In this document: positions 8 to 39,476 of the stretch, in pieces | Layout of the letters: each line of letters opens with the position of its first letter | Position numbering within the stretch: position 1 is the stretch's first letter | IMG/VR virus record: IMGVR_UViG_3300010155_002773 | Location: 1-39,476 of that record | Origin: a virus | Length of the DNA stretch: 39,476 bases | Direction: 5' to 3' (one strand) | Position numbers and translations under genes: made by a program | Notes under the pieces: model-generated | Databases searched by the model: none | Seen by the model: the letters and a program-made list of their open reading frames with translations, nothing else | What the model was told of the DNA's origin: nothing

Positions 8-433
8 ATGATGCCGGGCACGGCGACACAGGATACGCTGGATACTTGGAAGGCTAAAATCGACGCGCAGCCAACATTGTATGGGCAGTTTAAGGCGTGC
101 ATGACGATTATGAAGGATGTTAACCATAAGGTCTTCCTCGAAAGAACAACCTACACGCAGGAGCAGCAGCAGTATCTGAGGAACTACCTTGATGGTGAAT
201 ACGCGGGTATAATGAATGACCTCGAGCACCTCTTCGTGTCTCCTGAACTGGCTAACCTAAAAAAGGGTGACCAGGTTCCTGAGCTCACGCACTACCTTGA
301 TGACCCTGCTGGAGGTTTCTTTGAGAACCCCGAATGGAACGAGTATCGAGCCATGGTCTGGTGGGCGGCCAGTCGACGGGCGAAGCGCGATGCCCGCCCG
401 CTGATCGGTGTTCCTAGAGGAGGAGAACGCTAA
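8..433 (+). CDS. Hypothetical late protein between two ejection-type proteins
   Basis: This 141-residue helical, soluble protein matches no family I recognise. Its context (between the 1353-residue and 2054-residue internal-virion-type genes) suggests a small virion or chaperone component, which is inference only. There are two tandem start codons at 8 and 11. If the genome is circular, a GGAGG made of the last two and first three bases of the window sits 4 nt before the first and 7 nt before the second, so position 11 may be the real start. The stop TAA at 431-433 shares its last base with the ATG of the next gene, so translation is probably coupled. Tryptophans and an Arg-rich C-terminus are visible near residues 107-141. 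Confidence 0.8.
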   Translation: MMPGTATQDTLDTWKAKIDAQPTLYGQFKACMTIMKDVNHKVFLERTTYTQEQQQYLRNYLDGEYAGIMNDLEHLFVSPELANLKKGDQVPELTHYLDDPAGGFFENPEWNEYRAMVWWAASRRAKRDARPLIGVPRGGER

Positions 434-3400
434 TGCCGTACCCACCGGACGAAGAAGAGGAACGGAGATTTCTCACGCGGGAGCCAGACGCTGAGCCGGA
501 GGATTGGTTTCGTCCCCCGCCTCCCCCTAAGCCAGGCGAGCCAGGATTCAGGTCAGGGGGAGAAATCGACCACCTTCTCGGTCGACGAGCCCGTGTCGAT
601 GCTCTAGGACGCCCTATAGATGAAACGATCCTGAGGTCGAGGGAGGAAGTCGCACGACTCTTAGCGGCGGGGGGTGGAGCATCCGCAGAGCTTACGAGGG
701 CGGAAGCCAGACGCCACGTAAGTGAGGGGGATTTCTCCATAGGGCCGGTGGAGAAGTTTAAGCCTAAGAAGTACGACCATGATCGCTACCTACCGGAGAC
801 ATGGTTCGACCATGGTTGGAACTCGTCATTCGGCCTCCCTGCTCAGGTACTATGGCGATCCCAACGGTCGGCGATGACGAATAAGATTGACTTCTGGTCA
901 AAGGAAGGCATCCTTGACCCAGCCCTAATCCCGATAGCGGGCATGTTCTTCGACCACAAGTTCGACGTCGGCGCGGACGAGCTCACTGATCTGATGGGCG
1001 GCGAGAAGGACCACATGGGACATGTCGTCGGAACAGCGATCCTAATGGACCCGTTAACCTACATGACTGGTGGGCTGACAAGTCTGGGCAGGCTCGCGAA
1101 GGGGGCGACACACGCACGGCGGATGAAGGCTGTGTCGGACACGGCCAGGAGTTACCAAAGGGCGGGGAAGCTGAAGGCCGGGGGCAAAACCTTCGCGGAC
1201 CTGATGGACTGGGCGGACAACCTCCAGGTCAAAGATTTCGCTAAGTTGCTTAAGGATTCCAGGGCTACTCTCATGGCGCAGAAGCCGAAGCGCTCTTTGA
1301 AACCGTGGACAATCTGGAAGCGGTGGCGGGAGAAGGAGAATCTCAGGGTAGCAATTAGGGAGTTCTCGAGAACAGACAAAGCTAACCACGGCCTGCGCAT
1401 CACGGAGATATTGGCCCACGAAGGGAAGCGGCGTATCGGGTTTGGAATCCCATTCACTGCCTCGGAGAAGTACCTATTCTGGAAGATGCCTGCTCACTAC
1501 AACAACTGGTTTAAGTTGGTTGGGACAGCTACGGCGAGGACTATCGGATCGCCGCTGATAACGCGGCCTCTGATGGCTATCCCCGGCATGGACGCGGCGA
1601 TAATGAACCCGCTGCGCAACCTCAGGGGTGGCTGGAAAACGGGTGACCAGATAACAACCGTGCTCAACTTGGCGGAGGACAAGGCTGACCCCGAGATGCT
1701 GGGTCGCCTGGCTCACTGGGCTAACCGCCTAACAGGGGGTGGCGGGGTAGCGGACCGCATAGATTCCGTGGGCATTGATTCAGTTCTATCCGTCTTTGAC
1801 GAAGCCCGACTGGGGGGAGCCACCATAGAGGATGCGTTCAAGGCTGCAATGAAGGACATAGCCCCCGATAACGAGAGCATCAACAAAATCTGGGGCCGGC
1901 TAACTGGCGTCAAAACGGACGAAAAGCTCCGACCAGCCATATCAGCGATCACCAATGACATGGAGGGGGGCGCTGTTGCCGCACGTAAACTCCTCGAAGA
2001 CACCATGACGGCAGCCATGAAGGGGAGGGACGAAGCCCTCGAGGTCCTGTCCAACGAGAACATGCTGATCAAGCCGGACATAAGTGAGTGGGGCAAGCTG
2101 CGCGATGAGCTGAAGGCGGGCAACGAGGGGCGAAACGCATTAGCTAAGGGGCTTGCCGACTCGCTTTTTAAGATCGGCGAAAAGTCCAAGGGGTGGTTAC
2201 GCCAAGCATTTAAGGTTGGGGGGGAGATGCTGCATCAGGAGCAGTCAGCCAAGGGTCTCATCATAGACCTGGCTCGCAGCCAGAATCAGGTCCACTCCCT
2301 GACCAGGCGACTCTTCGTTGGTATCCAGAAGTTAGCTGACAGCAACGAGGAGATGACCCCCGAGTTGACGACCACCTTGCTCGGGGCCTTCATGCGCATG
2401 GACATACTCCCGGATGAGCTCGCAGCCGTCAGGGAGTTGGCCTCAGCGAATCCAAAGAATAGCCTCGAGGCCCTCCGAGCGCTGGATGATCAGCTCGACC
2501 GTGGCGAGGCTATTTTCAGAACGCTTGAGGAAGTGTTTAATGCGGCAGGGATCGAGGGCGATATTCTGAAGAAACTTTCCAAGTCTTTCAACGAAGAGGT
2601 ATTTACGCAGCTACCCAGACTGAACGAGCAGGAGCTCGCCGTTAAGTTCAAGGACTGGGCCCGCACCCTATCCGAGGAGGCGTTTGAGTTTACCCCTGAG
2701 CAGGCGAAGCGTATGGAGCGCTCGTACAATAAGCACACGCTTTTCTCGGGGACCCATGAAGGCCAACAGGTAGGGGCGCTAAGCGACGATGCCTTACAGG
2801 CGGAGTACAAGCGTGCAATGAAGTCAGCCCTACGTGCCACGACTGACAAGGAAGCTGCCGACATTCTCAGGCTGAATCCCGTGGTCACGGACTGGGTTAA
2901 GGCCGAGGGCATAACCGTCGAGGAGCTGCTAGAGGTTGCCCGCAGGGAGACACTCGCGCCTGCCACGCCCTCCACTACCAAGCCTGGGGTTGAGGGGTTC
3001 ATGGAGGCATACCTGGAGAGTTCTAAGGTTAACCCATCAGGCGGCGATAGGTACTGGCAGGTTAAAAGAACGGTAGAGAAGAAGGCGTATGACTTCATTG
3101 TCCAGACAGATGTTAGACCCGCACGGCGAATTACCGGGGGCAAGGGCGAAGAAATCCACATCCGCAGCATTTCAACAAACGCCCCAGGGTTCGGTTCCGG
3201 CACAGAAGTAATGAACCGGATCCTAAAGATAGCAGACGAGGCAGGCGTAACTGTACACCTTGATGCTGTCCCGTTTGGCTACAAAACCCTCACAAAAACG
3301 CAGTTGATGAAGTGGTACCGCAAGTTCGGGTTCAAGGGGGTGCGGAGAACGGGGCTCATGGTCCGTGCGCCGAAGGCGGTGAAGAAAGTTAAAGGGGCCC

Positions 3401-4827
3401 CGAAGACACGCAGGATCAAGAGGCCGGGCGCTACTAAGACGCTCGACTCCGCCAAGTTGAGGGCCTTCCTAAACCACCTGAAGGAGAGCCGCATAGCTGT
3501 CGAGGGGTCAGAAGTAGTTGGCGACCTCTACACCATCCTTCGCGGCAAGGGCAAGACGATGGACAGCAGCTTGTTCTTGGGTGCTGATGCTACCGAGATT
3601 CCAAAGGGGCGCTATACGCAGCTCGATTGGGATAAGCTGGTAGAGACTGACGCTGCACGGCGCCACTCGTTAGAGAATGGGCTGAAGGAGGGCGACGACC
3701 TCTACGAGGTAGCCAACGTCCCCACCAAAGTGAAAAGGAATAGGCGCGTCGAGGACCCACGCCTGCTCGCTGAGCAGGTCCCCGGAGAGGAGGGTGACGT
3801 AATGAAACTCATCCTCGGTCTGGGCCAAGAGAAGGCGTTCGCGATCTCCGACGATAGGCTCTCGGAGATAGCAATCTCATGGATGTCGGCGAGGCACATG
3901 ATCAAGGAGTACAAGACATTCTTGAGGCGGTCAATGAAGCTTAACGAGGGTCACCCCGAGAATGTACCCCTTCACCCTGAGTACCTTGACAAAATAGCTG
4001 CTCACATGCAGGAGATAGGGGGCAGGGCCAGGGACTTAGCCCTCCAACATCTACCCAAGGAGTTCATGAAGCTCTTCATAGATGTACAGGGGATACAGGG
4101 CACGATTTTCAACGAGTCGCGGCGCATGGGTATCTGGAAGATCGGTTCACCGATTGGGTATATAGGGCGGTACTTTAGTGAAAAGGGCCAGATGGCTATG
4201 GGCAGGCTAATTGGCGAAATTGATGGTATGTCCCCTGACATACTTACTCGCCTGGGCTCGAAGTCGCCGCACCGCTACAAGCGGAACATAACCACAATGA
4301 CCATAGAGGAGATTAACGAGCAGTACAATCAGTTACATGAACTCCAGAAAGAGTTCCCTGCCCTTAAGAAGTGGTTAACCAGGGCCGACAAGATCATGAA
4401 GGACGAGGGGCTTAAGTTCAAAGGTAGTTTTTGGAGCCCTAGGTCTCAACTAAGGCCCCGAGGCGAGGGCGTCAAAAGTTTTTGGAGGGAGCGCGTAAGC
4501 ACTGACCCGATACTCGGGCTGATGATGCGGCTGAGCGAGGCTTCAGGTGAGAAGTCCCTGGAGAAATACTTCGAGACGCTCTTCGACGCGACAAACAAGG
4601 TCCCCGGCGAGTCCAGCATGCTAGGTGGAAAGGTCGTGGCCATCCTCGACTCTGGAGGCAAGCCAGTTGGCGGGATTAAGTCGCTGAAATCGAAGACATT
4701 AGACAAAATGATAGAGTCAGAAGCGTGGAGAAGGGCGACTACGAGGGAGGAGATCAGCGAGGTGTCCCCGACCTACATCGTGATCTTATCTGACGATGGG
4801 GTCTACCACATTTTGGGCGCCGCGTGA
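433..4827 (+). CDS. Giant ejection/polyvalent virion protein, N-terminal part, with GNAT-like domain
   Basis: This 1464-residue protein starts at an ATG in a TAATG overlap behind AGAGGAGG. By position (last large gene of the structural operon, after gp14/gp15-like genes) it is probably the T7 gp16-type internal virion protein ejected into the cell. The N-terminus is acidic and then proline-rich (residues 1-40). The segment near residues 205-225 (DPLTYMTGG, followed by a hydrophobic helix) resembles large phage polyvalent proteins. Residues about 870-980 look like a GNAT acetyltransferase: a strand IHIRSIS, the acetyl-CoA loop PGFGSGTE at 918-925, a helix, a strand VTVHLDA, and WYRKFGF at 961-967. 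The frame ends at a single TGA (4825-4827) and continues in the same frame into the next ORF, so this may be only the first part of a 2054-residue product. No lytic transglycosylase motif was seen. Confidence 0.85.
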   Translation: MPYPPDEEEERRFLTREPDAEPEDWFRPPPPPKPGEPGFRSGGEIDHLLGRRARVDALGRPIDETILRSREEVARLLAAGGGASAELTRAEARRHVSEGDFSIGPVEKFKPKKYDHDRYLPETWFDHGWNSSFGLPAQVLWRSQRSAMTNKIDFWSKEGILDPALIPIAGMFFDHKFDVGADELTDLMGGEKDHMGHVVGTAILMDPLTYMTGGLTSLGRLAKGATHARRMKAVSDTARSYQRAGKLKAGGKTFADLMDWADNLQVKDFAKLLKDSRATLMAQKPKRSLKPWTIWKRWREKENLRVAIREFSRTDKANHGLRITEILAHEGKRRIGFGIPFTASEKYLFWKMPAHYNNWFKLVGTATARTIGSPLITRPLMAIPGMDAAIMNPLRNLRGGWKTGDQITTVLNLAEDKADPEMLGRLAHWANRLTGGGGVADRIDSVGIDSVLSVFDEARLGGATIEDAFKAAMKDIAPDNESINKIWGRLTGVKTDEKLRPAISAITNDMEGGAVAARKLLEDTMTAAMKGRDEALEVLSNENMLIKPDISEWGKLRDELKAGNEGRNALAKGLADSLFKIGEKSKGWLRQAFKVGGEMLHQEQSAKGLIIDLARSQNQVHSLTRRLFVGIQKLADSNEEMTPELTTTLLGAFMRMDILPDELAAVRELASANPKNSLEALRALDDQLDRGEAIFRTLEEVFNAAGIEGDILKKLSKSFNEEVFTQLPRLNEQELAVKFKDWARTLSEEAFEFTPEQAKRMERSYNKHTLFSGTHEGQQVGALSDDALQAEYKRAMKSALRATTDKEAADILRLNPVVTDWVKAEGITVEELLEVARRETLAPATPSTTKPGVEGFMEAYLESSKVNPSGGDRYWQVKRTVEKKAYDFIVQTDVRPARRITGGKGEEIHIRSISTNAPGFGSGTEVMNRILKIADEAGVTVHLDAVPFGYKTLTKTQLMKWYRKFGFKGVRRTGLMVRAPKAVKKVKGAPKTRRIKRPGATKTLDSAKLRAFLNHLKESRIAVEGSEVVGDLYTILRGKGKTMDSSLFLGADATEIPKGRYTQLDWDKLVETDAARRHSLENGLKEGDDLYEVANVPTKVKRNRRVEDPRLLAEQVPGEEGDVMKLILGLGQEKAFAISDDRLSEIAISWMSARHMIKEYKTFLRRSMKLNEGHPENVPLHPEYLDKIAAHMQEIGGRARDLALQHLPKEFMKLFIDVQGIQGTIFNESRRMGIWKIGSPIGYIGRYFSEKGQMAMGRLIGEIDGMSPDILTRLGSKSPHRYKRNITTMTIEEINEQYNQLHELQKEFPALKKWLTRADKIMKDEGLKFKGSFWSPRSQLRPRGEGVKSFWRERVSTDPILGLMMRLSEASGEKSLEKYFETLFDATNKVPGESSMLGGKVVAILDSGGKPVGGIKSLKSKTLDKMIESEAWRRATTREEISEVSPTYIVILSDDGVYHILGAA

Positions 4828-4839
4828 GCTGGGGATACG

Positions 4840-6597
4840 TTGGGGGCTGCTCTTGGGGTTATGCCTTTAGGGAGGTTTGCTGACGAGGTAGAAACAGGAG
4901 TCAAGGCTACCACCGCGCAGGCATTTGTCAGGGCGAGTAACCGATCCGATCTGTTTAATAGCATGCTCGATCCCGGCCAACTTGCGGGAGAAGAGGTACT
5001 ACACGGCCTAATGGGTCAACATGTACTTGCCGGACCTCAGCAAGTTATACGAGCTGCCATAGAGACAGCGGCTCAAACCTTGTCCGTCGCTCACCCCGCA
5101 TTGCGGGCCTACGACAACGTGAACTACATGATCAAGGGCTTCCAGACGATCTATCGCCCAGGATTCCATGTGAGCAACCTCGCCTCTGGTGTCTTTCAGG
5201 CTTTACACGCCGGAGTAAGGCCTGATCATCTTATATCGGCTTACGTGGACACGTTAGCTATCCTCTTCGGTGACGGCGAAGCTGCACGCTTAGGGTCGAT
5301 GATCACGACGGGGTTGGGTACGGGGGGCGTCAAGTTCAAGGGCAAGACGCTAAGGACGCCTTCGTTACAGTTCCTCGATGCCGTCCGCGAGCTGGGGCCA
5401 CTGACTGACGACATTCAAATAAACGATTTCCTAAGGGCAAACCTACACAAGATACCGTCAGCCGAAATACAACTGGGTGGCGGGAGGACGGTCTCGTGGT
5501 TCGACTTCGCCCGCGCCGCCAATGCGGGGCACCTCTACGGTACTTACTCCGCCGCATTGAGGACAGGGTCGGCCACGGTCTCGACCAGTCTGCTGAGGGC
5601 TAAGGTCCTGGCCTTAGCTGGCGAGGGTTCACGGATCGGTCGTTGGGTCACGAAGACGGTTGACAAGGGTAACCGCATCGCGGAGGTCTCCGAGTTCGTG
5701 AACCGGACGGCCACGGCCATTGGTCTGCTGCGGTCGGGCCACTCATTAGAGATGGCCGTAGACCTCACGCGGGGGGCGCACGTACCCTATGAGCAACTCA
5801 CGATTGCGGAGCGGGCTCTCGCCAAGCGGTCCATCGGGTTCTACACATTCGCCAGACATTACACACCTTGGGCGTGGACGAAGTTCATGGAGGACCCAGC
5901 CAAGCTGTCTGTCCTCGCGCACTCCATCATGGATAATAAGAAGTACGTCGATGTGAGCGGCGACAAGCCTACAGGTGTCCTGGGCGAAAAGAGGTACAAC
6001 ATCGCGAGGATGAATGCAAACATTGAGGCCATGATGTTACCCCAGGCGTTCGCTGAGCGTTTCCCCAAAGCGATTGTCGACACGACAAGCGGCGACGAGT
6101 TCTCGACCTCCCTATTACGCGACGAGCCTTCAGCCTCTGGGTTACTGTCTCTCGGAGGCATCGCAGGTATCGTCACGGGCGGGGCGGAGCTGTTCCCTAC
6201 AGGTAGCAGGCTTCAGCAAAAGAAGGGTTGGACACAGCATGCGCGAGACGCCACCTGGCCCATCAAGATAGCGTTTCAGCTTGCTGGGCTGAAGCCAAGC
6301 AGGGAGGATCTTTCGCCCTACGTGGACTACACGCCCATAGAGGCCATCCTGGCTGACACCGATTACGGGCTGGGCATCCGCAAGGTACGTCCGGGAGATG
6401 AACTGCTTCGTGCGCGAGCCCGGTACAAAGGTTTGGAGAGAAAGATTAAACTACGTCACGAGGCGACTGATGACAAGGAGGTTAAGGCGGATCTGGAGGG
6501 CTACCTACTAAAGCTCCAAGCCGAGCTTACACGTTTAGAAAAAATAGCCAAGTTGCAGGGTTATGGCGTCGCAACAGCGAAGAGGTTGAACTTCTAA
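4840..6597 (+). CDS. Giant ejection/polyvalent virion protein, C-terminal part after an in-frame TGA
   Basis: This 585-residue frame is in phase with the preceding 1464-residue ORF, separated from it only by TGA and four codons. The first possible start is TTG at 4840 with GGGG 6 nt upstream; an ATG follows at 4861. Two segments resemble C-terminal domains of large phage and mobile-element polyvalent proteins: RPGFHVSNL at residues 106-114, and an RSIGFYTFARHY segment near 330 followed by a Pro-Trp. This supports the view that both ORFs form one protein. Possible explanations are stop-codon readthrough, a recent nonsense mutation or sequencing error, or a true split into two separately initiated proteins. 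The C-terminus (about 520-585) is charged and helical. The stop overlaps the next ATG (TAATG). Confidence 0.8.
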   Translation: MGAALGVMPLGRFADEVETGVKATTAQAFVRASNRSDLFNSMLDPGQLAGEEVLHGLMGQHVLAGPQQVIRAAIETAAQTLSVAHPALRAYDNVNYMIKGFQTIYRPGFHVSNLASGVFQALHAGVRPDHLISAYVDTLAILFGDGEAARLGSMITTGLGTGGVKFKGKTLRTPSLQFLDAVRELGPLTDDIQINDFLRANLHKIPSAEIQLGGGRTVSWFDFARAANAGHLYGTYSAALRTGSATVSTSLLRAKVLALAGEGSRIGRWVTKTVDKGNRIAEVSEFVNRTATAIGLLRSGHSLEMAVDLTRGAHVPYEQLTIAERALAKRSIGFYTFARHYTPWAWTKFMEDPAKLSVLAHSIMDNKKYVDVSGDKPTGVLGEKRYNIARMNANIEAMMLPQAFAERFPKAIVDTTSGDEFSTSLLRDEPSASGLLSLGGIAGIVTGGAELFPTGSRLQQKKGWTQHARDATWPIKIAFQLAGLKPSREDLSPYVDYTPIEAILADTDYGLGIRKVRPGDELLRARARYKGLERKIKLRHEATDDKEVKADLEGYLLKLQAELTRLEKIAKLQGYGVATAKRLNF

Positions 6598-7663: not shown

Positions 7664-7842
7664 AGCCAGGATGGAAAACTACGGAGTGGGCCATGACGGC
7701 CCTTTGTATGGTTGTTGGCCTGCTGATTTCAGCGGGGATTTTCGATGAAACGGGGATGGTTATGAAGGCTCTTGGACTTGCTGCTGCGGCTTTGACCAGC
7801 GCGGGCTATTCAGTCTCGCGGGGTCTGGCCAAGCGTGGATGA
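7660..7842 (+). CDS. Holin-like two-helix membrane protein
   Basis: This 60-residue protein has a short charged N-terminus (MKPGWKTTEW) and two predicted transmembrane helices, about residues 11-28 and 35-53, joined by a short acidic turn, ending in SRGLAKRG. This is the layout of small class II-type phage holins, and the KTTEW and GYSVSRGLAK segments look like a phage holin family I have seen before. It would form the inner-membrane lesion at lysis. No endolysin was recognised anywhere in the genome, so its partner is unknown. The start overlaps the upstream stop in ATGA. Confidence 0.7.
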   Translation: MKPGWKTTEWAMTALCMVVGLLISAGIFDETGMVMKALGLAAAALTSAGYSVSRGLAKRG

Positions 7843-8257
7843 CATTGACTGGGCTTACTTTGCGGGGCTTCTTGATGCTGACGGCTGCATCTCCATATCA
7901 CGCTACCGCAGCAGCCAAGGTCGTGTCTACCACATGCTCAGGGTCGTACTTACCAACGGTGACAAACCAACGGTCGACCGCCTCGGCCTCGAGCTCGGAG
8001 GATCGGTCTATATAGGCAACAGGAACAGCCCCGCGCATCATGTCACAGTGTGGAATTGGTCGGTGTCGGGCCGTAAGGCCATTGATGTACTGCGCCAATG
8101 CCTGAAGCACCTACGCATTAAGAAGCTAAGGGCCCAGGTAGCTATTGAATATGGGAAGACGATGACCGGTGGAGTGTTAAGTAAGGCTACTATCAAGCAG
8201 CGCGAGAAGTTGTATAAGAGGATGAAGGTCCTGAACCAGAGGGGGAGGCACCGCTAA
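7835..8257 (+). CDS. Free-standing LAGLIDADG homing endonuclease
   Basis: This 140-residue protein carries one LAGLIDADG motif at the N-terminus (YFAGLLDADG, residues 8-17, with Asp16 as the expected metal ligand), followed by the usual beta-sheet saddle and basic C-terminal helices. A single motif implies action as a homodimer. GTG 7835 is the likely start and overlaps the holin-like stop by 8 nt. Such genes are selfish elements that cleave alleles lacking them. No intron or intein signature was seen around it, so it appears free-standing between the lysis cluster and the RuvC-like gene. Its stop shares one base with the next ATG. Confidence 0.85.
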   Translation: MDDIDWAYFAGLLDADGCISISRYRSSQGRVYHMLRVVLTNGDKPTVDRLGLELGGSVYIGNRNSPAHHVTVWNWSVSGRKAIDVLRQCLKHLRIKKLRAQVAIEYGKTMTGGVLSKATIKQREKLYKRMKVLNQRGRHR

Positions 8258-8760
8258 TGATTGTACTGGGAGTTGATCCGGGTTACCGCAACCTCGGCCT
8301 GAGCATCGTCGAAATCTCGGGCGATGGCAAGAAGGCCAAGGTGCTCTACTCGAAGAACGTCTCGGTAGGTAAGGCGACAGCCCCGATGATGTTCACGAAG
8401 TTCCTCTGGCCGAGGCTCGTTGCGCTCCACAAGGAGTACGGCATCGAGGCGGTAGCCAGTGAGACTCCCCCATTCATCATGGGGCAGATCAAGACGACGG
8501 CATTCCTCTGGGCCGTGGGCTCAATCGTTGTTGCCTGGGCGCATAACGAGGGGGTACCGTTCAAACACGCATCACCCATCTCGCTGAAGAGGGGCGTTTG
8601 TCGTGCGTTAGAGTTACCCTGGGATCGCAAGTTTATCCCCAAGAAGAAGGATGTGAAGGCGGCAGTTCGACGAATTACTGGGGACTGCGGCTCGACCTCC
8701 CACGAGGACGACGCCACTCTGGCCGCCATTCTCATGTTCAGTGAGGTTATCCCCCGATGA
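8257..8760 (+). CDS. RuvC-like Holliday junction resolvase
   Basis: This 167-residue protein has the RuvC/RNase H fold. GVDPGYRNLG at residues 5-14 gives Asp7, SETPPF gives Glu69, and SHEDDA at 148-153 gives His149 and Asp151/152, matching the acidic catalytic set. Phage resolvases of this type trim branched DNA before packaging. The length is close to the bacterial RuvC core. It lies in the late arm downstream of lysis genes rather than with the replication genes, consistent with a role in DNA maturation. The start is in TAATG and the stop overlaps the ParB-like start (ATGA). Confidence 0.88.
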   Translation: MIVLGVDPGYRNLGLSIVEISGDGKKAKVLYSKNVSVGKATAPMMFTKFLWPRLVALHKEYGIEAVASETPPFIMGQIKTTAFLWAVGSIVVAWAHNEGVPFKHASPISLKRGVCRALELPWDRKFIPKKKDVKAAVRRITGDCGSTSHEDDATLAAILMFSEVIPR

Positions 8761-38400: not shown

Positions 38401-39476
38401 ATACGATAATCATAATTTTTACGTCCCCCCTCGTGCCTACCCACGCCGGTACTCTGACGAGTGGTTCGAACAAGAAATGTACGGGCGGCCCCTGACAGAC
38501 GTGGACCCCCACCCCGAGATTCCAAGAATACCCGATGCTCCCCTCTGGCCCGAAAACCCGATGCTCCCCCTCCCGACGAGAGGGCGGTACGCACCTGCGC
38601 AGCCGGGGCCAGGCTTTGGTCCGGCATTCGGGGCCGAAGAGATGGGGCCGGTGGATCCGAGTGCCTACGATACCGCGCCGCCCCTCTACCCACCGGGCGG
38701 TGGAGGTGTTGGCGACGTAAGAGGGGGTAGAGTTAACCCCAACCAACCCTTAACTGTGTCACCTGGGGCATTTGAGCGCTCGCCGTTCAGCCAATTGCTC
38801 CAACCCTCCCAAGCTGGGGAATCTTTCCCACAGCTTGCCAGCGCCCAGTACGAGGAGGTCATAAACCCACGCATCGCCCTGTCCGAAGCGTTTCTTAACA
38901 CAGGGGGGAGGATCGATACGTCAACGCCGGCGGGGATGGCAGCAAAGACAATCTACACTCACCTCAAGCGCCATCAAACTAATGGCAATGGCGATATACT
39001 GCAACGCTTCAACGCTGGTGATCTCTCTATCCAGGAGCTCCTTGACCAAGGGGCGATTCCGCCCAGGTCGGACATACCCTACTCCACAACATTAGAGGAA
39101 ACGAGGCGGCAGCATACTGAGGTTGTGGCCGCATTAACTCGAATCCAGGGGATGGTGGATAGTGGCGACACAAGCCGCCAAGGTCTCTTTAGGGATAAAG
39201 AAATAGGGCCTGGTCGCCAGGTACAAATGGTCACCAGGAAGACTCTCGAGCGTGAAGCCGACATATTGACGTCGCGTGCAGGGAAGCTCCAGTTGCTGAT
39301 GGATGCTAAGACGAATCCGGTGGTAGAGCGAGCTGGCCGCATACTTGAGGACATCGTACTCGGGGTGGGAGGGAACAAACACTTCAGCAAGGCTGTCGCG
39401 GGAGACTCAGAAGCAGAATCAAAAAAAGAAAAAGAGGGGAAACAGGGAGTTGGGGAGCGCTTCCTACAACACATGG
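35426..39476 (+). CDS. Large internal virion (ejection) protein, open at the window end
   Basis: One frame is open from ATG 35426 to the last base, giving at least 1350 residues with no stop. It begins 1 nt after the upstream TAA. The N-terminus repeats the Gly-rich start plus coiled coil of the previous gene (LGAVGSGTPGAMG; EKQQDRMFQLQAQKS), then helical domains, a Pro/Gly-rich segment around residues 960-1110 and a Lys/Glu-rich end. Size and order fit T7 gp15-type ejection proteins. If the window is circular, three more codons (Glu-Ala-Leu) and TGA at 9-11 complete a 1353-residue protein whose stop overlaps the next start. No enzymatic motif was recognised. Confidence 0.85.
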   Translation, partial: MSALSTALATIGGTLGAVGSGTPGAMGQFVQSMGQQGERALDREWAAFEKQQDRMFQLQAQKSADALTMRRDKMKHGFDMERLQEQHGLAVKFAGIAQGLKGEAATVAYDRREASRKASQEHDLKLAKANNDARYAIAVLNASATAGGTAPEEAATTVASATRTNPALIQVAGGKLPPEVRASFSAAIAKGDHLGAGEIFANHVGPIAFKPIWSQVNSEYGKATEIDSALVGMGYPIGDVQGMEPGEKQRLYGIRSREHAAAQTYIAGQAKLAQGIMQMPAAGKDIRKSRTNYESALGQLQALKNSEGHSQVAGFDFHVFGKEEQFNVAQEFIEGFGGPPLRSGGALAPPSRSGGSLGVEWQNLQKQIDNNIQSLETGQTTVERSIAGQTLQEHLSEGNFAGWKGAHLTAFRDEEEFTDFLQTNPDVQKLVARVNSIANLISMIPKNADVLPGMPEGVATLAFHFNRMGAELPQGGANELLSMLYDDSEGGITEKGRKHIGTFLKTLANVDPRRMTRAMVQYDQFVKDRDIAEDMSSDMFARDLVNAGVGSQTFLPPLENGTALWQSALVDEDVNNKYAANLPGATQEDYMMKAKVFSKERYLRAPGVHKAFAKSLTRPLFSFDPTMEGGYSTETIRSMGHQYLTWLENKHKIVNKTQTKEITDPVWATFINGTRAQFDKALAAEGFDPAGAEPWIKGTMPETSLVPPLSQLEIYHHSKVSMDPKRGRNLVVPLTVVGRESTKGAGTILRGLRLHARADLQAPMDLPAVYDLIQRNNQGPQTLPGYAESLGGTSLRQIPRTQAFGEPDSLEDWPGTQDLVRDFRYRMAKPTREAGVLEERDIPKAAIDPIIDAGLPEGMPEEISTELKRAARSSAQKLSGKAFWAALGAAAVVAPMPKELKGGVTEPFELYLNPPKGVEPRAWASLLDLFDMNSVVGSMDAELAARIDRHGFEGGEWYGLRMDDGRERPYPYEPGGSLDPFGQFGPITGDPRYDNHNFYVPPRAYPRRYSDEWFEQEMYGRPLTDVDPHPEIPRIPDAPLWPENPMLPLPTRGRYAPAQPGPGFGPAFGAEEMGPVDPSAYDTAPPLYPPGGGGVGDVRGGRVNPNQPLTVSPGAFERSPFSQLLQPSQAGESFPQLASAQYEEVINPRIALSEAFLNTGGRIDTSTPAGMAAKTIYTHLKRHQTNGNGDILQRFNAGDLSIQELLDQGAIPPRSDIPYSTTLEETRRQHTEVVAALTRIQGMVDSGDTSRQGLFRDKEIGPGRQVQMVTRKTLEREADILTSRAGKLQLLMDAKTNPVVERAGRILEDIVLGVGGNKHFSKAVAGDSEAESKKEKEGKQGVGERFLQHM

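What the first reader, a model, noticed from the sequence alone, without database searches (positions are those of the whole stretch)
3040..3400. GNAT acetyltransferase-like domain inside an ejection protein
Residues about 870-980 of the 1464-residue protein show an acetyl-CoA loop-like PGFGSGTE (918-925), a following helix, a strand VTVHLDA and WYRKFGF (961-967), the usual order of GNAT motifs A and B. Internal virion proteins enter the host with the DNA, so this could modify a host protein, tRNA or small molecule at the first moment of infection, comparable in concept to T4 Alt. I know of polyvalent phage proteins carrying enzymes, but not of this pairing as a characterised system.
Basis: partly seen in the sequence, partly recalled or inferred. 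Interest (0 to 1): 0.72.

Follow-up and report, generated by a model that had tools for sequence, protein, structure and literature searches.

The report
Acetyltransferase-like domain swapped into phage protein
A giant protein of a marine virus of bacteria, probably injected into the host with the viral DNA, carries a domain related to acetyl-transferring enzymes where its relatives carry a different one; similar pairings have already been described in other phages.

Summary
Residues 908-989 (nt 3154-3399) of the 1464-aa ORF match a profile of phage GNAT domains at 38.9 bits (E 2e-10). The best of 5,000 shuffles reached 7.9 bits. A homologue-guided AlphaFold model gives a minimal GNAT order, and nearly all its best PDB matches are GNATs, AcrVA5 first. 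The Gly-x-Gly loop and alpha-4 Tyr962 are kept. The Arg usual at the loop start is Pro918, and no Pfam GNAT model detects the domain directly, so it is divergent and its activity is unproven.

The domain replaces residues ~840-1032. Ten relatives with sequence across this site carry an unrelated ~100-130-aa block, two distant ones carry neither, and none carries a GNAT. In all nine full-length relatives the host protein is a single 1,843-2,057-aa ORF; here an in-frame TGA (4825-4827) splits it.

'Ejection protein' rests on gene position only; the core matched no annotated family. The pairing is not new: Iyer et al. 2017 described GNATs in phage polyvalent proteins and proposed a host-modifying role. 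I found the same domain inside an N4-type virion RNA polymerase and PLxRFG or structural giants.

Verdict: a new, divergent member of a known kind, probably a virion-delivered protein acetyltransferase; target unknown.

The parts
433..4827 (+). 1464-aa ORF: front three quarters of a giant internal (probable ejection) protein, with an N-terminal extension of about 120 aa that relatives lack
   Evidence: ATG with strong Shine-Dalgarno AGGAGGAG
2950..3528 (+). Variable slot, about residues 840-1032: not alignable to the relatives, which carry an unrelated ~100-130-aa block here
   Evidence: tblastn gaps; alignments; slot profile hits ten relatives but not the window; GNAT profile hits no relative
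3154..3399 (+). GNAT-like domain core, residues 908-989
   Evidence: family HMM 38.9 bits, E 2e-10; AlphaFold core block means 68-92 pLDDT; Foldseek
3184..3207 (+). PGFGSGTE, residues 918-925: acetyl-CoA pyrophosphate-loop equivalent; G921 and G923 conserved, Arg position is Pro918
3313..3333 (+). WYRKFGF, residues 961-967: motif B helix with the invariant Tyr962 (candidate general acid)
4825..4827 (+). In-frame TGA that splits the gene; not present in any of nine full-length relatives
4840..6597 (+). Same-frame ORF, 585 aa from TTG 4840 (or ATG 4861): the C-terminal, best conserved part of the same protein family (33-43% identity)

Best explanation
The feature is a divergent GNAT (GCN5-type acetyltransferase fold) domain that replaced another domain in a variable slot of a giant internal virion protein of a marine tailed phage. 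Most likely the protein is packaged in the head, enters the host with the DNA at the start of infection, and the domain binds acetyl-CoA and acetylates a host protein, either a transcription or translation component or a defence protein. Shown here: homology to a phage GNAT family, the predicted fold order, and replacement of the slot. Inferred from gene position: ejection. Inferred from family membership: catalysis and a protein substrate; the target is unknown.
For: Family HMM match, 38.9 bits against a shuffle maximum of 7.9. 49 of 52 domain-family members match Pfam Acetyltransf_7. Model with helix-strand-strand-helix-strand-helix-strand order, mean pLDDT 73 and up to 92 in the motif B region. 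The top 22 PDB fold matches are nearly all GNATs, and BFVD matches include the Gundel_1 structural protein. Conserved G921, G923, D935, L958, Y962, G966, R978. Same domain in N4-type virion RNA polymerase, PLxRFG and structural giants. Clean slot swap relative to ten relatives. Structural-module position: portal, MCP-size ORF, tail-size ORFs, two internal-protein-like ORFs, then this gene if the contig ends are joined. Published precedent.
Against: Pro918 replaces the near-invariant Arg of the loop, and the beta4-to-loop turn is two residues shorter than in the family. No Pfam model detects the window domain. Very long branch. The gene carries an in-frame stop downstream. No independent evidence of packaging: the core has no Pfam, PHROG, PDB or INPHARED match and its model was unusable, pLDDT 49. 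The AlphaFold model leans on the GNAT homologues in its alignment.
Confidence: 0.5

Rival explanations
1. A catalytically dead GNAT-fold domain kept as a binding or structural module of the internal protein: it may still bind a host or phage partner but transfers nothing.
For: Arg918 to Pro, two-residue deletion before the loop, long branch, no Pfam detection, absent in all relatives.
Against: G-x-G, Tyr962 and the six residues invariant across the alignment (G921, D935, L958, Y962, G966, R978) are all retained although the rest is only 17-30% identical to the family.
Confidence: 0.3
2. The protein is not ejected: it is a tail or other structural protein that stays outside, or a morphogenesis protein, so the domain never reaches the host cytoplasm in this way.
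For: No database match of the core to any known ejection protein. The only weak bridge, through distant relative L197, is to a PHROG called tail fiber.
Against: Giant size, position at the end of the structural module after smaller internal-protein-like ORFs as in T7-like phages (established knowledge), largely helical predicted C-terminal part though at low confidence, and the same domain inside N4-type virion RNA polymerases, which are ejected (ejection of N4 vRNAP from established knowledge).
Confidence: 0.15
3. Chance resemblance of a lineage-specific linker to GNAT motifs.
For: No single-sequence Pfam match; few and short motifs.
Against: Profile score five times the best shuffle score, over 82 residues; concordant single-sequence hits to several other phage GNATs; fold search.
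Confidence: 0.03

Closest known systems
GNAT domains in phage polyvalent proteins (Iyer et al. 2017, PMC5512222)
   Same: GNAT-fold domain inside a very large phage protein thought to be delivered with the genome; proposed role is modifying host proteins
   Different: No neighbouring ART, peptidase or other recognisable conflict domain in this protein; core unrelated by sequence to any annotated family; domain below all Pfam cut-offs
GNAT-like domain in Pokkenvirus (N4-type) virion RNA polymerases, Pokken and Piffle
   Same: Homologous domain (HMM 44-45 bits) within an ejected giant protein of 3,522-3,523 aa
   Different: Carrier is a polymerase; the loop there keeps the Arg (GRGQGGA)
PLxRFG and structural giants: Klebsiella phage ZX1, Vibrio phages 1.185.O and 1.232.O, Tenacibaculum phage Gundel_1
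   Same: Homologous GNAT domain embedded in 2,482-3,867-aa proteins
   Different: They keep Arg at the head of the loop; the window has P-G-F-G-S-G-T and lacks the DFGG and ENKGRNKDF segments of the main family
AcrVA5 (anti-CRISPR acetyltransferase acting on Cas12a; 6iuf)
   Same: Best PDB fold match, also a minimal GNAT; hit by the A5 profile at E 0.002
   Different: Solo anti-CRISPR protein, not part of a virion protein; the window domain alone has no significant sequence match to it
phiKMV-group Rac acetyltransferase (PMC7552054) and T4 Alt
   Same: Concept: phage enzyme that modifies a host protein early in infection; Rac is a predicted GNAT, Alt is carried in the virion
   Different: Rac is made after infection, Alt is an ADP-ribosyltransferase; no homology to either was tested here

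Membership tests
GNAT superfamily | Core order beta4-alpha3-beta5-alpha4-beta6/7 | tested here: met
   Model strands and helices E41-47, E57-64, H74-88, E91-95, H106-114, E126-129
GNAT superfamily | Fold match to solved GNATs | tested here: met
   Nearly all top 22 Foldseek PDB matches are GNATs, E 0.004 for AcrVA5 with TM 0.65 on the target; no E below 0.001. Model guided by GNAT homologues
GNAT superfamily | Pyrophosphate-loop glycines G-x-G/A at the start of alpha3 | tested here: met
   G921 and G923 align with G (51/51) and G/A (51/51) of the family
GNAT superfamily | Q or R at the first position of the loop motif (typical, not universal, so not counted as defining) | tested here: not met
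   Pro918; 47 R, 3 Q, 1 K in the 51 others
GNAT superfamily | Tyr in alpha4 as general acid (typical) | tested here: met
   Tyr962, 51/51 in the family
GNAT superfamily | Curated Pfam GNAT model above cut-off | tested here: inconclusive
   No Pfam hit for the window domain; 49 of 52 homologous members hit Acetyltransf_7 at E up to 0.01
GNAT superfamily | Acetyl-CoA binding and transfer | not testable with these tools
   needs purified protein
Polyvalent proteins (Iyer 2017) | Two or more recognisable conflict or enzymatic domains in one polypeptide | tested here: not met
   Only the GNAT-like domain is recognisable; Pfam and PHROG scans of the window ORFs and of relatives found nothing else. 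Not filed as a polyvalent protein in the strict sense
Polyvalent proteins (Iyer 2017) | Delivered into the host with the DNA | not testable with these tools
   position only
AcrVA5-type anti-CRISPR acetyltransferase | Acetylates Cas12a or another Cas protein | not testable with these tools
   only a fold-level resemblance
Internal virion / ejection proteins of T7-like phages | Sequence or structural homology to known ejection proteins | tested here: inconclusive
   No match in Pfam, PHROGs, PDB sequences or INPHARED; C-terminal model too poor to compare

The most novel reading that the evidence does not exclude
The slot at residues 840-1032 is an exchangeable effector site of a virion-delivered protein: related phages load different small domains there, and this phage has loaded a minimal, AcrVA5-like acetyltransferase that disarms a host defence or transcription protein before any phage gene is expressed.
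Probability: 0.2. Interest if true: 0.65.

Novelty: new member of a known kind. Interest (0 to 1): 0.34.

Why it matters
If right, it adds a carrier, an otherwise orphan group of marine phages, to the known theme of enzymes that ride into the cell with phage DNA, and shows by direct comparison with ten relatives that such domains are swapped in and out of one site of the probable ejection protein. That gives a practical way to find further effectors: read the same slot across the group. The target of any virion-borne GNAT remains an open and testable question.

Tried and rejected
Pfam, PHROG and PDB-sequence searches with the window protein or domain alone gave nothing significant except phrog_10691, a 3,925-aa family of unknown function, E 9.5e-6. 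The search for related loci with the protein or domain alone found nothing; relatives were reached through the portal and then by profiles. INPHARED has no relative of the host protein. I tested whether the block in the relatives is a degenerate GNAT: profile-profile comparison gives 0.65% probability, so rejected. I tried to identify the core by modelling the C-terminal 585 aa: pLDDT 49, so no fold search was made. Bridging through distant relatives L193, L195 and L197 reached only two uncharacterised environmental phage records and one weak tail-fiber PHROG. A scan for near-identical contigs with another codon at the TGA found none, so a sequencing error cannot be told from a real stop. A domain tree places the window on a very long branch, so no ancestry is claimed. 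Terminal overlap of the contig: none found, though joining the ends gives sensible gene spacing.

Full report
Observation. The window protein alone gives no Pfam match. In tblastn against INPHARED the domain alone matched two records: a solo protein annotated GNAT in Pseudomonas phage HRDY3 and a 3,292-aa protein of Vibrio phage 1.232.O. Searching with the HRDY3 protein opened the family: Lu11, Klebsiella phage ZX1 PLxRFG protein (3,867 aa), Tenacibaculum phage Gundel_1 structural protein (2,482 aa), Vibrio phage 1.185.O (2,514 aa), and the virion RNA polymerases of the N4-type phages Pokken and Piffle (3,522 and 3,523 aa).

Is it more than chance? Profiles from these sequences found 338 related stretches in viral contigs and a few more. 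Of 66 loci examined, 40 carry the domain in ORFs of 1,200 aa or more, cut ORFs included. 49 of the 52 sequences used for modelling, but not the window one, match Pfam Acetyltransf_7 at E up to 0.01, so the family is GNAT. An HMM of the family hits the window ORF at residues 908-989 with 38.9 bits, E 2e-10; the best of 5,000 shuffles of the window domain scores 7.9 bits and no other window ORF is hit.

Structure. The model of residues 850-995, guided by 51 homologues, has mean pLDDT 73, about 90 around alpha3 and 92 around motif B, and the order helix-strand-strand-helix-strand-helix-strand. The best PDB matches are GNATs: AcrVA5, Naa50, puromycin acetyltransferase, TacT2; the viral library returns Gundel_1 and other phage GNAT proteins. 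The E-values against the PDB are modest (0.004 at best), the AcrVA5 superposition has a poor rmsd (8 A over 100 columns), and the model borrows from its homologues, so this agrees with the profile result and is not independent of it. The beta-bulge could not be inspected.

Active-site residues. Across the alignment G921, D935, L958, Y962, G966 and R978 are invariant, window included; G923 is G or A in all. Arg, present in 47 of 51 others at the head of the loop, is Pro918 in the window, and the turn before the loop is two residues shorter. The domain is therefore divergent; I judge activity somewhat more likely than not, but it is not shown.

The carrier protein. Relatives were reached through the portal protein and then by profiles. 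Nine full-length relatives (L065, L067-L072, L079, L084) have a single ORF of 1,843-2,057 aa covering both window ORFs, 433-4827 and 4840-6597, which are in one frame separated by TGA 4825-4827. The stop lies in a loop of variable length; ATG 4861 has a possible Shine-Dalgarno. Whether it is an error, a real split or read through is open; no near-identical contig covers it.

The slot. Tblastn matches of the window protein stop at residue 839 or before and resume at 1028 or later. Between, nine relatives and the partial L184 share a block that their own profile recognises at 122-212 bits; that profile does not hit the window, the GNAT profile does not hit the relatives, and the two profiles are unrelated (0.65% probability). 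Two distant relatives, L193 and L181, have neither. This is a domain replacement, not divergence of one domain.

Is it an ejection protein? The core has no Pfam, PHROG, PDB or INPHARED match, and a model of its C-terminal part is too poor to use. The claim rests on size and place: terminase (21618), portal (23167), MCP-size ORF (26407), a 1,763-aa tail-size ORF (29219), a 303-aa ORF (34513), a ~1,360-aa ORF (35402 to the end) and, if the contig ends are joined, a 141-aa ORF and this gene. This is the usual place of internal virion proteins in T7-like phages (established knowledge). I hold ejection at about 0.75.

Known or new? Iyer et al. 2017 (PMC5512222) name GNATs among four classes of protein-modifying domains in polyvalent proteins, with two families, one in gammaproteobacterial prophages and an uncultured Mediterranean phage, and suggest protein substrates. 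The jumbo-phage overview PMC7824862 relates them to T4 Alt and phiKMV Rac (Rac in PMC7552054). New here is a divergent GNAT in an orphan marine phage protein and the direct view of a swapped slot. AcrVA5-like GNATs are known anti-CRISPRs, and structure-guided searches have found more (PMC10799925), which makes an anti-defence role possible but no more than that. That the phage group is marine is an inference from one relative's metagenome neighbours and was not tested.

Noticed in passing
4825-4827: In-frame TGA splits a gene that is a single ORF in nine full-length relatives; homology continues on both sides. Sequencing error, real split with restart at TTG 4840 or ATG 4861, or readthrough cannot be told apart.
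   Followed up: partly
1-11 and 39200-39476: Joining the contig ends ends the 35402 ORF with a stop a few bases into the window, overlapping the start of ORF 8-433: the contig is probably a complete, circularly permuted genome without terminal overlap.
   Followed up: partly
7835-8257: Free-standing ORF matching PHROG HNH endonuclease (E 5e-23) but with the motif YFAGLLDADGC, which looks LAGLIDADG-like; it abuts a RuvC-like ORF (8257-8760).
   Followed up: no
433-790: N-terminal extension of about 120 aa, proline-rich at its start, absent from all relatives of the giant protein.
   Followed up: no
L069 (G013:C1:13500-20800): The 2,057-aa relative has about 170-220 extra residues ahead of the slot (slot starts at residue 930 instead of 706-767): possibly another inserted domain, no Pfam match.
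   Followed up: no
L091:936-1391: Klebsiella phage ZX1 has, besides the GNAT domain in its PLxRFG giant, a separate gene annotated GNAT next to its tail fiber gene.
   Followed up: no
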